From: a virus | Length of the DNA: 24,820 nucleotides | Reading direction: 5' to 3' (one strand) | IMG/VR virus record: IMGVR_UViG_3300035670_001184 | Coordinates: 1-24,820 of that record | Shown: in pieces, positions 2,539-16,350 of the stretch | Numbering within the stretch: position 1 is the stretch's first letter | Layout of the letters: every line of letters begins with the position of its first letter | Translations under genes and position numbers: made by a program | The notes under the pieces: generated by a model | What the model was told of the DNA's origin: nothing | What the model saw: the letters and a program-made list of their open reading frames with translations, nothing else | Database searches by the model: none

Positions 2539-2627
2539 ACCAAGATTTAGCACAGAAAGGCGAGGTGCCAAATGAAGCTGGAAGTAGTCGAGATGACGGA
2601 CGAACAGCTCAAGGAAGCGAACCTTAA
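2535..2627 (+). CDS. Possible 30-residue peptide, coupled start
   Basis: An ATGA overlap with the previous stop opens a 30-codon frame (MNQDLAQKGEVPNEAG...) that ends inside the next gene in another frame. It has no recognisable motif. It may be a short translated leader that carries ribosomes to the start at 2572, or chance. Low confidence. Confidence 0.2.
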   Translation: MNQDLAQKGEVPNEAGSSRDDGRTAQGSEP

Positions 2628-3261
2628 AGAGCTGGCATACATCGAGGACCGGATACGTGCTGAAGACCAGGAGGAACTGGAAGGGTCGCTTCGTAAGTCA
2701 CAACTAATTCGGCAATGCCAGGCGGGCGGGCTGTTTAAGGCTGGAGGATTCGCGACGGTCGACGCTTGGGTACAGAAGCGATTCGGGTACAGCAAGAAGC
2801 ACGTCTACCGATTAATCGGTGCCGGAGTCGCAAATGAAGTCCTATCTGAGCACATTGAACAAGTCGAGAACAAGGTCAAGCAGAAGGTCAAGGACTGCAA
2901 AGTGCTACGTAGCACTTTGCTTCCACAGACTCTCGGAGAGTTACATGCGTTTGGGACACAGCGGTGGATTAACGAGCCACATTGGACGCCGTTCGTGGAT
3001 GTCTACGCGGAGGCGTGGGCACAGCAACTTAACGCGCAAAAGGACTCACGTCCATCAGCAAGACTCGTGCAGAAGGTAGCCAAGAAGATGTTTCCGCAAG
3101 CCTACACGGACCCACGCACCAAGAAGAAGCATGCGGCTAAGGCTGTTGAGAAAGAGAGTGCCGTCAACCGGTTCAAGAAGTGGATTGCAGCGGAAGCATT
3201 CAACAAGCAACAGCTGCGAGCGATCATGCGTGAAATGCAAGACCTCATTAAGGAGATGTGA
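2572..3261 (+). CDS. ParB/DUF3102-like DNA-binding protein
   Basis: A 229-residue protein. The N-terminal 40 residues are acidic and helical. Residues about 60-85 (FATVDAWVQKRFGYSKKHVYRLI) form a helix-turn-helix of the kind seen in ParB-like and DUF3102-like phage and plasmid proteins, where a serine-lysine turn precedes a VYRLI recognition helix. A Lys-rich helix follows (VENKVKQKVKDCKVLRS), and later comes SRPSARLVQKVAKKM, a segment typical of such proteins. The C-terminus is basic and helical. ATG 2572 has GGCGAGG at a good distance. The GHKL ATPase gene starts four bases after its stop, so the two probably act together in DNA organisation, replication control or silencing. The family call is by eye. 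Confidence 0.55.
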   Translation: MKLEVVEMTDEQLKEANLKELAYIEDRIRAEDQEELEGSLRKSQLIRQCQAGGLFKAGGFATVDAWVQKRFGYSKKHVYRLIGAGVANEVLSEHIEQVENKVKQKVKDCKVLRSTLLPQTLGELHAFGTQRWINEPHWTPFVDVYAEAWAQQLNAQKDSRPSARLVQKVAKKMFPQAYTDPRTKKKHAAKAVEKESAVNRFKKWIAAEAFNKQQLRAIMREMQDLIKEM

Positions 3262-3264
3262 TCA

Positions 3265-4833
3265 ATGGGTATTAGCAAGACAAAGCGGAACGAGCCGCTC
3301 GCCAACATGATCCGGTCATATCAAAGCGACGGCCATATGGAGTGGCATATCGCCATTGCGGAAGTGATCGATAACGCGCTGGAGGAGTGTAAGGGAAATG
3401 CGAAGAACGTTCTTGTATTCATCGATGACGACACGGACATGATCACAATCGCTGATGACGGAAACGGAGTTGATGACATCAATAGATTGTTCCAGCTTGG
3501 CAACACCACGAGCTACGACATCAAGAACACTATCGGACTCTATGGGGTAGGTGTTACCAAGTCCGCGATATGGGCCGGCGAACAGATGTTTGTCCGCACC
3601 TTGCACAAGGGTAAATACTACCAACACATCGTCAACTGGACGGAGTGCTTGAAGCAGAACGAATGGCCCAAAGCTCACGACATGACTCCGGACCGCGGAC
3701 GTATGCCGGACTGGTGGCCGAGGGGAACGGTTGTGCAGATTACAGGCAGACGCAAGAGCCCCGCGCTGAACGAGCAGGGCATCAGGAACAAATTGACGCG
3801 GATGTTTCAGTCAGCCATTCGCGGAGGCGCTGTGATCTACGTTGGAAGACCGGTGAATGGCATGTTGTCAAATGACAAACAGCTGAAGGTACTTGACCCT
3901 CCGAAGATGTTGCAGGAGCAGATGTTTGATGGAGAGGTTAATGGCAAATCATTTACTGGTCGTGCGTGCGTGCTGGAGCGACACAATGATAACTTCGATG
4001 GCTGCTACTTTCACTTCATGCACAGGTTGCTGTTTCGCAATTACGAGCCGTTTGGCGACATGAGTACACAGCGTATGTACGTCGAGATATTCCTAGGGCC
4101 TGAATGGAAGTACGACTTATCGCAGGTCAAAGACCAGATAACCCGCGACCGGCAGGAACTCTACGACGCTGTGCACACGAAGATAAAGAGCCTACTGGCA
4201 GACAGTGTGCACTATGAGGAGGAAATTGAGTTTGAGGACTGTGCCGCAGCACTGAATGCGATGGCTGAGAAATTCGGGCTCCGTGATATCGACAATCGTG
4301 GAGGCGAAGGGCAATCAGGAGAAGGACACGGCGGGGATAGTTCAAGCGGAGATGGAGACAAGAAACCTAACAGGACCGGACCAGGTGATGAGGAGGGGAA
4401 AGGACATGAGCGCGACGATGGGACGGATCATGACAAGCGTGCAATGGGGTTGACGTTTGTTTTTAAGGGTGATGATGACATGGATGGCAAGATCGTCGAT
4501 GCAAGGCTGCAGTCAGACGGAAATAGCATGAAACTACTTGTGTTTTTCAATAAGTCTACCCCGGAGATAAACGCTGCTGCCGTCAATAAACCAAAAAACA
4601 ACTGGGGGCTTTGGGCACTCGGAATGGGTGCCGTCGGAGCATTGTTACTATCAGAACACGCGAAGTACGATCAGTGCGACAAGTCCCCATTTCCGAAGAT
4701 CATGCGAAAGCTACCGTCAATTAATGACAAGATGAAGGCATATGCGTTTACCGTGACTGAGTTGATGCGTAACTTTCAATCGACTGAGCGTAGGAAACAG
4801 AAGCGCAAGAGAGCATACAAGTCGGGGATCTAG
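3265..4833 (+). CDS. GHKL (MORC/HSP90-type) ATPase
   Basis: A 522-residue ATPase. The Bergerat fold is clear: N box EVIDNALEE (33-41), with the catalytic Glu and Mg-binding Asn; G1 box ADDGNGVDD (63-71); G2 lid GLYGVGVTKSA (91-101). PRGTVVQITG near 150 fits the far end of the domain and a second alpha/beta domain follows. It is not a histidine kinase (no H-box), and it lacks the rest of a gyrase or topoisomerase. The spacing is closest to MORC-type ATPases, which clamp DNA. About residues 336-393 are a Gly/Asp/Glu-rich flexible linker. Residues 447-462 are hydrophobic (WGLWALGMGAVGALLL) and the tail is very basic (RRKQKRKR). GGAG before the ATG supports the start. It lies directly behind a ParB-like gene. 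Role unknown. Confidence 0.8.
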   Translation: MGISKTKRNEPLANMIRSYQSDGHMEWHIAIAEVIDNALEECKGNAKNVLVFIDDDTDMITIADDGNGVDDINRLFQLGNTTSYDIKNTIGLYGVGVTKSAIWAGEQMFVRTLHKGKYYQHIVNWTECLKQNEWPKAHDMTPDRGRMPDWWPRGTVVQITGRRKSPALNEQGIRNKLTRMFQSAIRGGAVIYVGRPVNGMLSNDKQLKVLDPPKMLQEQMFDGEVNGKSFTGRACVLERHNDNFDGCYFHFMHRLLFRNYEPFGDMSTQRMYVEIFLGPEWKYDLSQVKDQITRDRQELYDAVHTKIKSLLADSVHYEEEIEFEDCAAALNAMAEKFGLRDIDNRGGEGQSGEGHGGDSSSGDGDKKPNRTGPGDEEGKGHERDDGTDHDKRAMGLTFVFKGDDDMDGKIVDARLQSDGNSMKLLVFFNKSTPEINAAAVNKPKNNWGLWALGMGAVGALLLSEHAKYDQCDKSPFPKIMRKLPSINDKMKAYAFTVTELMRNFQSTERRKQKRKRAYKSGI

Positions 4834-6962: not shown

Positions 6963-7204
6963 CGGAATACCTGGCAATGACCAATAAGCGGCTGCTGAAC
7001 GGGCACCGCACGACGGTGACCCATGGGTCTGCAGACGGCAAAACGACGTACTGCGGCCGAGAAATTGATCGCTGGTATGTAACATTCCCCGCACTGGAAC
7101 GGTCGCGACTGTCGTGCTCTGGGTGCATCGCGGCCAAACTGAAAGGACTGAAGGACCATGGCGAAGACAACACAACTACAGGTGATTGCCCAGTATCTGA
7201 ATGA
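6959..7204 (+). CDS. Small putative zinc-binding phage protein
   Basis: An 81-residue protein. KTTYCGREID and, about 20 residues later, LSCSGCIAAKL give a C...C-x2-C arrangement, with HGSADGK before it possibly providing a histidine ligand. This resembles short phage proteins carrying a CGR...C-x2-C treble-clef knuckle. ATG 6959 overlaps the upstream stop. The C-terminus overlaps the recT start by 47 bases in another frame, an unusually long overlap; recT may be read by reinitiation or by its own ribosome site. Function unknown, but its position suggests a role close to recombination. Confidence 0.5.
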   Translation: MTEYLAMTNKRLLNGHRTTVTHGSADGKTTYCGREIDRWYVTFPALERSRLSCSGCIAAKLKGLKDHGEDNTTTGDCPVSE

Positions 7205-7994
7205 CAAGGTCGACAGGATCGGTGAACTGCTGCCGCGGAACGCACCGATTGACAAACGCACGTTGGTGCGTGTGGCGTTGATGGCGGTGAACGAAAACCC
7301 AGCACTACTGGCGTGTTCTCCGCAGAGCATTTACGCAGCGGTTCTTGAGTCGGCGAGGCTCGGACTTGAAATCGGCGGACCAGTCGCACAGGCGTATCTG
7401 GTGCCGTACAAGATGAGAGACAAAGTAACCAAGCAACTGGTTACGCGAGCATCTTTCCAGCCGTCATATCGTGGCCTAATCGATCTCGTGATGCGGAACG
7501 GAGGCGTACGCAAGGTAAATGTGCAGGCGGTCTATGTCGGCGATCTTTTCAAGCGTGACCTGGGTATCTTGGGCACGTTCATACACGAGCCGGGAGATGA
7601 CCCGGATCGTGAGTCGCGCGAAATAACGCACGTCTACTCTGAGTTCTTGTTTCCAGATAAGGAAGTGACGCGGTTCGTGATGACGACCAAGGAGATCAAC
7701 GAGCACGCTCGGCGATTCTCCAAGAGCTGGGGTGACCCTGACGGACCGTGGAAAACAGATTGGAAATCGATGGCGTCTAAAACGGTCATCAGGCTTCCGA
7801 TCATGCGTGGACTGGTTCCCGTCCATCTTCGTGACGACGTTAGGCAATACGTGGTTGCCGAAGACACCCAGCCAGGTTCACTCAAAGACTTGGCTGGTAC
7901 GTTCGGCGCCCCAGAGATCCCGTGCGACGCGGAAGGCGAGATCACGGAGGAAGAGAAAGCACAGATTCTGGCTCAGGAAGCGGCGGGAGAGTGA
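7158..7994 (+). CDS. recT: RecT-family single-strand annealing recombinase
   Basis: A 278-residue protein that matches RecT along its length: NPALLACSPQSIYAAVLESARLGLEIG (about 47-73), AYLVPYK, ASFQPSYRGLIDLVMR, then a W-x-x-x-MA-x-KTVIRLPI stretch (about 197-210), and an acidic C-terminus (EGEITEEEKAQILAQEA) as usual. It binds single-stranded DNA and anneals complementary strands, normally with a partner exonuclease. No RecE-, lambda-exo- or YqaJ-like exonuclease is visible in this window. AAGGACC just before ATG 7158 gives the start. The GTGNN array begins 20 bases after its stop, and rusA follows, so the three form a recombination block. Confidence 0.93.
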   Translation: MAKTTQLQVIAQYLNDKVDRIGELLPRNAPIDKRTLVRVALMAVNENPALLACSPQSIYAAVLESARLGLEIGGPVAQAYLVPYKMRDKVTKQLVTRASFQPSYRGLIDLVMRNGGVRKVNVQAVYVGDLFKRDLGILGTFIHEPGDDPDRESREITHVYSEFLFPDKEVTRFVMTTKEINEHARRFSKSWGDPDGPWKTDWKSMASKTVIRLPIMRGLVPVHLRDDVRQYVVAEDTQPGSLKDLAGTFGAPEIPCDAEGEITEEEKAQILAQEAAGE

Positions 7995-8013
7995 CGCTGT
8001 TAATTTAGACGGA

Positions 8014-8064
8014 GTGTCGTGGTGTGGTGTGGGGTGCGGTGCGGCGAACTGAACTGAAGTTTTT
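8014..8064 (+). repeat. GTGNN pentanucleotide array, block 1
   Basis: Reading from 8014 in steps of five: GTGTC, GTGGT, GTGGT, GTGGG, GTGCG, GTGCG, then GCGAA, CTGAA, CTGAA and a closing GTTTTT. The GTG is kept while the last two bases vary. A step of five cannot keep a codon frame, and this strand is between recT and rusA, so the order is not a coding effect. GGA precedes the first unit, as in block 2. Confidence 0.8.
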
Positions 8065-8086
8065 GCCATCATCCATAAATCACGCA

Positions 8087-8179
8087 GTGGAGTGTCGTGA
8101 CGTGCGGTGGGGTGTGGTGATGTGTCGTGATGTGAGGTGTGCTGGCGTGTTGTGTCGTGGCGTGAACTGAAGTGTTTTT
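8087..8179 (+). repeat. GTGNN pentanucleotide array, block 2
   Basis: Eighteen consecutive 5-base units from 8087 to 8176. Sixteen begin GTG and two begin CTG (8142 and 8167), with no insertion or deletion. Spacer pairs include GA, TC, AC, CG, GG, TG, AT, AG, GC, TT and AA. It ends GTGAA-CTGAA-GTG followed by a T-tract, almost the same ending as block 1 (GAACTGAAG then T5). The 22 bases between the blocks (8065-8086) are ordinary and AT-richer. It occupies the presumed 5' leader of rusA. Confidence 0.85.
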
Positions 8180-8207
8180 CCCACGCGTTTGCTGCATGGA
8201 TGCACCA

Positions 8208-8543
8208 ATGATTTCCTTCCGACTCGACTACCCGCCATCTGTCAATCACTACTGGAAGTCCTTCCGCGGCATTGTGACGCTATCCGCGGCTGCCAAGGCG
8301 TATCGGGCAGCCGCGGCCGACTACGCGTTACCTGCGCCACTGGAGGGCCGTCTGGCGGTCAGTCTGGAACTGACCATGCCTGACCGTCGGAAGCGGGACA
8401 TTGACAACACCGCCAAGGCGATTTTGGACGCGATCGGCCACGCTGGGATCTGGCGGGATGATTGCCAAATTGACCGGCTACTGATTCAGCGGGTTGGAGT
8501 GGAACCACCTGGGTGTGTGGATGTGGTCATTGAGGAGATGTAG
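8208..8543 (+). CDS. rusA: RusA-family Holliday junction resolvase
   Basis: A 111-residue endonuclease of the RusA family, which cuts four-way junctions as a dimer and helps resolve recombination or replication intermediates before packaging. The N-terminus FRLDYPPSVNHYW is the family signature. RKRDIDNTAKAILDAI (61-76) carries the first acidic pair (D64, D66) with a conserved Lys (K69), and WRDDCQIDRL (82-91) the third acidic residue (D85). Length is normal (RusA is about 120). The start is unsure: ATG 8208 matches the family's usual beginning, ATG 8196 adds four residues, and neither has a good ribosome site. The GTGNN array lies directly upstream and may affect expression. Confidence 0.88.
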   Translation: MISFRLDYPPSVNHYWKSFRGIVTLSAAAKAYRAAAADYALPAPLEGRLAVSLELTMPDRRKRDIDNTAKAILDAIGHAGIWRDDCQIDRLLIQRVGVEPPGCVDVVIEEM

Positions 8544-14649: not shown

Positions 14650-16350
14650 ATGCCGCGTCCATCACGCTTCACGCTGAACGCTTCGCACCCGCTTGCACAA
14701 TCGCTGGTGTTTGCTGGTCTGGCACCGCAGGGATTGGTAGGTAGCACTCACTACCACGACTCCTCGCCGTATGGCAATCACGGTGCACTGACCAGCATGG
14801 ACCCGGCAGTTGCGTGGGTCTGGTCGCCTGAGCTGAATCAGTTTGCCCTGGATTTCGATGGTGCGACTGACTTAGTTTTTGGTGCTATCCAGCATCTCAA
14901 CTTGCCAATTTCCTTCTCTGCGTGGATTTACCCGCACGACCTGACGTTTGGCTCGGCAGACAAATACATCCTATCAGTAGCCGATACGGCAAGCTCTACA
15001 AATTATATCGCGGTGTATGTCGTCGACTCAGACAGTAAACTGGCTGTTGCGACTAAAGACTCAACGCAAACAAGGTCATATAAAACGACAGCGGCAGTAC
15101 AGACAAACGTGTGGCAGCACGTTGCAGGTGTATTTGAGTCATCCAGTTCAATTACCGCCTACTTAAACACCGTCAGTACTGGTGCCGCATTATTAACAGG
15201 CACGCCATCTCCCGCCTGGATTGACACATTCTCTATCGGCGCACTCAAGCGAAGCACGACGGTTGCCTATTTCGACGGGATGATTGCGAACCCGATGATC
15301 TGGAATCGGGTATTGAGCACCGCTGAAATCTCCGCCCTCGCCGATCGCTCGAACGTGATGCTGAGCGGCTTGATCCTGCCGCCGCGACGGACACTTTGGA
15401 CCGGAGTGACGATCGGTGGTGGTGATGGAGGATCACACTCCGCATCAGCTAGTGAATCAGCATCCATCTCCGAAAGTGAATCGGAGTCCGCCAGCGAGTC
15501 GCATAGCCCATCAGCTTCGATATCGCAATCCGCATCGCCATCAGCCAGCGAATCAGCGTCCGCATCGCTTTCCGCATCGGCAAGTGAATCGGCATCCATC
15601 TCCGAAAGCACATCGCCATCGGCAAGTGAGTCAGTCAGCGAGTCAGCATCGATCTCACAGTCTGCTTCGCCGTCAGCGAGTGCGTCAGCGTCCGCATCGC
15701 TTTCTGCTTCCGCTAGTGAATCAGCTTCCATCTCTGAAAGCGAATCGGAGTCCGCCAGCGAATCACACAGTCCATCGGCATCGATCTCACAGTCTGCTTC
15801 GCCGTCAGCCAGCGAATCAGCGTCCGCATCGCTTTCTGCTTCCGCTAGTCAATCAGCATCCATCTCCGAAAGTGAATCGGAGTCAGCTAGCGAGTCACAC
15901 AGTCCATCGGCGTCCGTCAGCCAATCCTCCAGCGAATCCGCCTCAGAATCAGCCAGCGAGTCAGCGTCTGATCTGGGGTCTGGTTCAGAAAGTCGGTCTG
16001 AGTCGTCTTCGGTCTCGCAGTCCGCCTCGCCATCAGCGAGCCCATCCGCCTCGGAATCGGTTTCCGCTTCGGCCAGTGAATCCGCATCCATCTCGCAGTC
16101 CGCCTCGCCATCAGCGAGCGAGTCCGTCTCCGCATCGCTTTCTGCCTCAGCTAGTCCATCAGCGTCCGCCTCCATCAGCGGATCGGCCTCGATTTCACAG
16201 TCCCACAGTGAATCCACATCTGAAAGCAGCTCTGAGTCGACGTGGGAATTCGAGTTGTGCGAATGCACCATCACCACCAGGCAGCGGACGGTCTGCACGA
16301 TCACAACGACTAACATAATCGACTGCACCATATCGCTCATGCCTTGTTAG
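14650..16350 (+). CDS. LamG-domain adhesin/tail fibre with Ser-X repeat stalk
   Basis: A 566-residue protein in three parts. Residues about 30-240 form a LamG / concanavalin-like jelly roll: [68 protein letters not shown], a sugar-binding-type fold. Residues about 262-530 are nearly perfect Ser-X dipeptides (X is A, E, P, I, Q, V, L or H), an extended stalk. The end is a short Cys-rich cap with three CTI motifs ([23 protein letters not shown]) and a final C. All six Ser codons are used within the stalk, so the repeat is kept at protein level. There is no signal peptide, which fits a virion protein. It probably binds host-surface glycans. Confidence 0.75.
15434..16245 (+). repeat. Ser-X coding repeat region
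   Basis: A degenerate 6-bp-based repeat encoding Ser-X. Larger blocks recur, for example the protein phrase [19 protein letters not shown] occurs three times with small changes. The DNA copies differ in codon choice, which points to old duplications and continuing recombination. Confidence 0.85.

What the first reader, a model, noticed from the sequence alone, without database searches (positions are those of the whole stretch)
8014..8179. Non-coding array with invariant GTG every 5 nt between recT and rusA
Seen: two blocks, 8014-8064 and 8087-8179, in which GTG (twice CTG in block 2) recurs at exactly 5-nt steps, 18 units in block 2 without an indel, while the two spacer bases vary widely. 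Both blocks begin GGA-GTGTC and end GAACTGAAG(TG) plus a T-tract. A simple microsatellite would keep all five bases; keeping only three with strict spacing suggests selection for a protein that reads one triplet per subunit. Known analogy: TRAP rings bind (G/U)AG triplets spaced by 2-3 bases in RNA. Inference: a ring or filament protein, possibly RecT itself or an unknown phage protein, binds the GUGNN RNA or the GT-rich single strand to control rusA translation or to load the annealing machinery. I know of no described element like this.
Basis: partly seen in the sequence, partly recalled or inferred. Interest (0 to 1): 0.85.

Follow-up and report, generated by a model that had tools for sequence, protein, structure and literature searches.

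The report
Orphan VIPR-type guide-RNA arrays in phage
The strange run of GTG every five bases looks like a pair of genes for guide RNAs of VIPR, a newly described CRISPR-like phage weapon: the GTGs would be the protein's grip and the variable pairs between them would spell the DNA target, although this phage fragment carries no copy of the VIPR protein itself.

Summary
In detail: 8014-8058 and 8087-8176 hold phase-locked 5-nt units (18 consecutive [GC]TGNN in block 2; at most 7 in 5000 local shuffles). The same kind of array, GTG constant and NN variable, occurs in 65 of the 115 viral stretches that match (GTGNN)8. In 47 of these a ~190-aa Cas7/Csm3-like RAMP protein lies beside it (0 of 50 monotone microsatellites; p=2e-17), mostly with a second small gene. 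Both proteins are homologous to Vipr and Vap1 of phage SUSP1, the published VIPR system (PMC13142463), whose guide RNAs are (GGY)NN arrays. I therefore read the window's blocks as two vrRNA genes, one possibly decayed. The GTG triplets would be the footprint of Vipr subunits and the NN pairs would spell a gapped DNA target. Supporting this, across 123 GTG guides the NN pairs carry natural dinucleotide correlations, while pairs across units carry none. A related phage (TerL 48%, portal 49%) has a Vipr-like gene and a (GGC)NN array beside its rusA. Not shown: a Vipr gene in this truncated 24.8-kb record, transcription, which strand is the RNA, or a target (none found). RecT binding and control of rusA are not supported.

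The parts
8014..8058 (+). Block 1: short GTG/NN array (6 GTGNN + GCGAA CTGAA CTGAA), candidate decayed or minimal vrRNA repeat tract; guide part GT GT GG CG CG
   Evidence: strand of the RNA inferred
8059..8064 (+). T-tract after block 1 (GTTTTT), candidate RNA 3' end
   Evidence: no terminator hairpin found
8087..8176 (+). Block 2: 18-unit [GC]TGNN array, candidate vrRNA
8097..8161 (+). Inferred guide portion of block 2: 13 units AC CG GG TG AT TC AT AG TG GC TT TC GC; predicted 1-nt-skip target ACxCGxGGxTGxATxTCxATxAGxTGxGCxTTxTCxGC
   Evidence: boundaries inferred from the ends shared with block 1; no target found
8162..8179 (+). 3' end shared with block 1: GTGAACTGAAGTG + TTTTT, candidate vrRNA tail
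   Evidence: no stable structure
7158..7994 (+). recT (ssDNA annealing protein), upstream neighbour
   Evidence: phrog_148 9e-50, PF03837 6.8e-34
8196..8543 (+). rusA (Holliday junction resolvase), downstream neighbour (ATG 8196 or 8208)
   Evidence: phrog_34 6.8e-39, PF05866 2e-16

Best explanation
The two blocks are vrRNA-type guide-RNA genes of the VIPR kind, in a GTG/NN version. Transcribed RNA would be coated by oligomerised Vipr (a Cas7-like RAMP), one subunit per 5-nt unit. Each subunit would hold the GUG triplet out of pairing and expose the NN pair. The concatenated NN pairs would recognise double-stranded DNA with one skipped base between pairs (NNxNNx), so that the complex sits on a gene of a competing phage, satellite or prophage and represses it. 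The phage fragment shows only the guides; Vipr would come from the missing part of this genome, or in trans from a resident or co-infecting element. Shown here: the array anatomy; the association of such arrays with a RAMP homologous to Vipr and with a Vap1 homologue in other phages; NN statistics of a guide; a VIPR-type locus beside rusA in a related phage. Inferred: transcription, the GTG strand as the RNA, loading on Vipr, the skip rule for GTG arrays, the target.
For: Published VIPR: vrRNAs of 9-16 (GGY)NN units, 'or a related consensus', plus a 3' tail, bound by a ~20-kD RAMP, 1-nt skip on dsDNA, phage-borne (PMC13142463). Variable-NN GTG arrays: 47 of 65 viral loci carry the RAMP family versus 0 of 50 monotone arrays, p=2e-17; 8 more have it elsewhere in the same record. 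The family matches SUSP1 Vipr (2e-12; phrog_4652 up to 3e-13) and folds as Cas7/Csm3 (pLDDT 92; Foldseek 1e-8, VIA Z 12.6). A Vap1-like gene is present in 44 loci and matches SUSP1 Vap1 (5e-11). NN pairs within units have natural dinucleotide correlations (MI 0.036 bits, 0 of 1000 shuffles, r=0.82); pairs across units do not (661 of 1000), as expected if only N1N2 are adjacent in the target; they fit codon positions 1-2 best. L300, related to the window (TerL 48%, portal 49%, RusA 37%), has a Vipr-like gene and a (GGC)NN array right upstream of rusA. Orphan GTG array beside recT also in L048.
Against: No Vipr or Vap homologue in the window (best E about 1 with all filters off). The 3' end differs from the common GGAAAA tail, and no other viral contig has the searched tail pattern. 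No exact target: 13 units and 10 units in viral contigs, 11 units in genome contigs; no skip-rule excess in about 2 Mb of held DNA. Tail and arrays show no stable fold (z about +0.6 and +1.1) and no promoter or terminator was found. In all 47 vipr loci the GTG reading lies on the strand opposite to vipr, unlike SUSP1, so the RNA strand is open. Block 1 is shorter than any published vrRNA.
Confidence: 0.8

Rival explanations
1. Decayed relic: the locus once held a complete VIPR cassette; vipr was lost and the arrays are drifting remnants without function.
For: No vipr in the record; block 1 has only 6 GTG units and degenerate GCG/CTG units; a related phage has vipr exactly between its array and rusA.
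Against: Block 2 keeps the phase over 18 units with 2 of 54 triplet changes and no indel, which drift would not spare; the record is truncated at the capsid gene, so vipr may lie outside.
Confidence: 0.12
2. A protein-binding RNA or ssDNA element for RecT or a TRAP-like ring that controls rusA translation or loads the annealing machinery.
For: Position between recT and rusA; a second orphan array next to a recT (L048).
Against: RecT detected in only 13 of 45 array-bearing records, often kilobases away; the RAMP, not RecT, tracks the arrays; NN statistics are unexplained.
Confidence: 0.03
3. Pentanucleotide microsatellite that has diverged.
For: Monotone (GTGNN)n repeats are common: 50 of 115 viral stretches here and nearly all of the 119 cellular ones listed.
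Against: NN positions nearly saturated while triplets are almost invariant (p=3e-10) and no indels; variable arrays are tied to Vipr, monotone ones never.
Confidence: 0.03
4. Protein-coding repeat on the minus strand (His/Thr-rich ORF 7878-8249).
For: An open frame spans both blocks on the minus strand.
Against: CAC-rich repeats lack stops by composition; array steps elsewhere (59, 69, 65 nt) are not kept as multiples of 3; the ORF overlaps recT and the rusA start in antisense.
Confidence: 0.02

Closest known systems
VIPR (Viral Interference Programmable Repeat) vrRNAs, SUSP1 / type II clade (PMC13142463)
   Same: 5-nt units with a constant triplet and hypervariable NN, about 9-16 units, phage-borne, constant 3' end after the repeat tract; GTG arrays of this kind accompany homologues of SUSP1 Vipr and Vap1 in other phages
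   Different: Triplet is GTG, not GGY (the preprint speaks of 'a related consensus', its fig. S17 could not be read); vipr lies on the opposite strand to the GTG reading in 47 of 47 loci; the window has no vipr or vap; tail GAACTGAAG + T-tract instead of the SUSP1 pseudoknot tail
Class 1 CRISPR RAMP filaments (Cas7, Csm3; type III-A and type VII)
   Same: Fold of the array-associated protein; periodic kink of the guide by each subunit
   Different: No CRISPR repeats or spacers, no cas operon, interrupted recognition code
TIGR-Tas (PMC12045711)
   Same: Phage-borne tandem guide arrays for DNA targeting
   Different: From the abstract and prior knowledge: longer spacers and a Tas protein with another RNA-binding domain; nothing like this was found beside GTG arrays
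TRAP ring on (G/U)AG repeats
   Same: Protein reads one triplet per subunit at about 5-nt spacing (prior knowledge)
   Different: TRAP spacers carry no information; the protein here is a RAMP

Membership tests
VIPR vrRNA | Tandem 5-nt units, constant triplet, hypervariable NN, 9-16 units | tested here: met
   Block 2: 18 units, 13 as inferred guide; constant vs variable p=3e-10. Triplet is GTG, not GGY; block 1 is too short
VIPR vrRNA | vipr (RAMP) gene belonging to the system | tested here: inconclusive
   Absent from the window, but the record is a fragment ending at the capsid gene; present beside the same kind of array in 47 other loci
VIPR vrRNA | vap gene | tested here: inconclusive
   Not in the window; vap1-like gene in 44 GTG-array loci
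VIPR vrRNA | Invariable, structured 3' tail | tested here: inconclusive
   Both blocks share GAACTGAAG + T-tract, but no stable structure
VIPR vrRNA | NN pairs match a DNA target with a 1-nt skip | tested here: inconclusive
   No exact target for block 2; for 123 GTG guides as a class, within-unit NN look like contiguous natural DNA and between-unit pairs do not
VIPR vrRNA | Expressed ~100-nt RNA bound by Vipr | not testable with these tools
   needs small-RNA sequencing and pull-down
Vipr (proteins beside GTG arrays in other phages) | RAMP fold with G-rich loop, homologous to SUSP1 Vipr | tested here: met
TRAP-type element | TRAP (MtrB) protein and (G/U)AG triplets | tested here: not met
   triplet is GTG; no window protein named as TRAP among those scanned
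CRISPR array | Repeats of about 20-40 nt with unique spacers | tested here: not met
   5-nt units only

The most novel reading that the evidence does not exclude
Some phages carry only the guide RNAs (orphan GTG/NN vrRNAs, often beside recT) and borrow the Vipr protein of a resident prophage or co-infecting phage in trans, i.e. guide RNAs travel separately from their effector in phage-phage conflict.
Probability: 0.25. Interest if true: 0.8.

Novelty: new variant of a known kind. Interest (0 to 1): 0.6.

Why it matters
VIPR was described only in 2026 and is proposed as an ancestor of CRISPR. This locus points to a large GTG/NN branch in environmental phages, with vipr antisense to the arrays, arrays of up to about 68 units, and guides without a Vipr gene nearby. 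If orphan guides work in trans, the guide and effector of an RNA-guided system evolve and spread separately. A simple DNA pattern, (GTGNN)n with variable NN, finds such loci directly.

Tried and rejected
Rfam: no hit in the window or in 13 array loci at gathering thresholds, so no hammerhead was found there. RecT relatives by close-homology scan of viral contigs: none. Window DNA against phages (recT-rusA stretch) and plasmids (whole window): none. L034 Vipr against named phages by tblastn: none, so the GTG branch seems confined to uncultivated phages at that sensitivity. Tail-specific pattern: none. Target scans of block 2: none. Skip-rule test on about 2 Mb of held loci: swamped by repeats, no excess for 1-nt skip; apparent hits such as the L018 guide in the vipr gene of L017 match only 24 of 48 bases overall and were dismissed. 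Folding of the arrays on both strands: not better than shuffles. Obligate link to recT: tested and dropped. Supplementary figures S16-S22 of the preprint could not be read, so whether GTG/NN is already listed there is unknown.

Full report
OBSERVATION. The array is there as described. Block 2 is 18 units of [GC]TGNN without an indel, 16 of them GTG; block 1 is 6 GTGNN followed by GCGAA CTGAA CTGAA. Both blocks begin with GGAGTGTCGTG and end with GAACTGAAG plus a T-tract. Local dinucleotide shuffles never exceed a run of 7. The triplet is nearly invariant while NN is close to saturated (2 of 54 against 23 of 36 deviations, p=3e-10), which is not how a decaying microsatellite looks. The window is a 24,820-base IMG/VR virus record. 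It runs from early regulators through recT, rusA and a replication gene to terminase, portal and a capsid/protease gene that reaches the right end, so tail and other genes are missing.

WHERE ELSE IT OCCURS. A scan of viral contigs for (GTGNN)8 gave 115 stretches. 65 hold arrays with variable NN; 50 are monotone microsatellites. In 47 of the 65, and in none of the 50, the held DNA encodes one protein family of about 190 aa (p=2e-17); eight more of the 65 have it elsewhere in the same record. Arrays flank this gene or lie between it and a second small gene, found in 44 loci. In 47 of 47 loci the gene is on the strand opposite to the GTG reading (two extra same-strand counts there are secondary short runs in L059 and L064).

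WHAT THE PROTEIN IS. The alignment A1 (25 sequences) ends in a conserved G-rich loop (FIGxGQFRPxNGGxxGRF). AlphaFold2 gives pLDDT 92. The closest solved structures are Cas7-type subunits of type VII and Csm3 of type III-A complexes (Foldseek E 1e-8; VIA Z 12.6, rmsd 4.1-4.9 over 162-165 residues). The preprint PMC13142463 describes VIPR: Vipr, an ancestral phage RAMP, with vrRNAs of 9-16 (GGY)NN units 'or a related consensus' whose NN pairs read dsDNA with one skipped base. In phage SUSP1 (L123) I located the RAMP (28474-29061, minus), the small neighbour (28031-28471) and GGY arrays in the flanking intergenic stretches on the same strand. The GTG-associated family matches this Vipr (2e-12; phrog_4652) and the second gene matches its Vap1 neighbour (5e-11). 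So GTG/NN arrays belong to VIPR-type systems.

A RELATED PHAGE. TerL relatives of the window include L300/L333 (TerL 48%, portal 49%, capsid 40%, RusA 37% identity). There a Vipr-like RAMP (1e-13) lies directly upstream of rusA, and upstream of the RAMP is a short (GGC)NN array followed by CAACTGAAAGG; the window's blocks end in GAACTGAAG. A second relative of that RAMP, L335, has a 12-unit (GGC)NN array followed by a T-tract, as in the window. In L300 the array and RAMP are on the same strand as rusA. So in this wider phage group the rusA region can hold VIPR-type loci. The window has the arrays at that place but no RAMP, and no Vipr-like or Vap-like ORF anywhere.

ORPHAN ARRAYS. L048 and L024 carry vrRNA-like GTG arrays in records of 30-32 kb without a Vipr match. 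In L048 the array, with the common GGAAAA tail, lies next to a RecT-family gene. In the L046/L041 contig an array lies about 30 kb from vipr. Arrays can thus be separate from the protein gene. RecT itself is found in only 13 of 45 array records and at very different distances.

DO THE NN PAIRS CARRY A MESSAGE? I could not find a target for the window's 13-unit guide, and local searches were uninformative. As an indirect test I pooled interior units of 123 distinct GTG guides. Within a unit, N1N2 has the neighbour correlations of natural DNA (mutual information 0.036 bits, 0 of 1000 shuffles as high; correlation 0.82 with contiguous dinucleotides of the same loci). N2 and the next N1 show none (661 of 1000 shuffles as high). 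The spectrum fits codon positions 1-2 better than the other two phases in every bootstrap over loci, as expected if the skipped base is the wobble position. Mutational neighbour effects inside the array could mimic part of this, so it is support, not proof. Read as a gapped target, block 2 gives, on the reverse strand, GCxGAxAAxGCxCAxCTxATxGAxATxCAxCCxCGxGT, which has no forced stop.

MECHANISM, SHOWN AND INFERRED. Shown: anatomy, association, homology, fold, NN statistics for the class, synteny with a VIPR-type locus in a related phage. Inferred: the blocks are transcribed (T-tracts suggest the GTG strand, as in L335, but vipr is antisense to GTG in the other loci), the RNA is bound by Vipr with one subunit per unit, GUG is held away from pairing, and NN read a target with one-base skips to repress a competitor. 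Block 1 may be too short to work.

VERDICT. An orphan, GTG-consensus vrRNA pair: works like VIPR guides (0.8). Formal membership stays open because vipr, target and transcript could not be shown for this record.

Noticed in passing
L041:5974-6278 (+), L035 (minus strand reading) 664-1003: GTG/NN arrays of about 61 and 68 units, far longer than the 9-16 units reported for vrRNAs; possibly staggered or overlapping guides.
   Followed up: no
L300:1-1016, L333, L334, L335: A divergent Vipr-like RAMP with a single short (GGC)NN array just upstream; a rusA homologue lies immediately downstream in L300/L333/L334 and about 2 kb upstream in L335.
   Followed up: partly
L050:9011-10194, L075, L079: The vap-like gene is divergent from vipr, so arrays there share strand with vap but not with vipr.
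   Followed up: no
window 2572-4833: Adjacent genes for a 229-aa protein without family match and a GHKL ATPase-domain protein (HATPase_c_3, 4e-13); function in the phage unknown.
   Followed up: no
window 15448-15908: 132-bp tandem repeat (3.5 copies) inside a long ORF (14650-16350) without a PHROG match, rich in Ser/Ala/Glu.
   Followed up: no
L012-L121 array loci: Common array ends: 5' TTGTCGTGTCGTG or similar and 3' GGAAAA; in tandem sets the 14-nt joint GGAAAACTGTTGTC repeats between guides (L034).
   Followed up: partly
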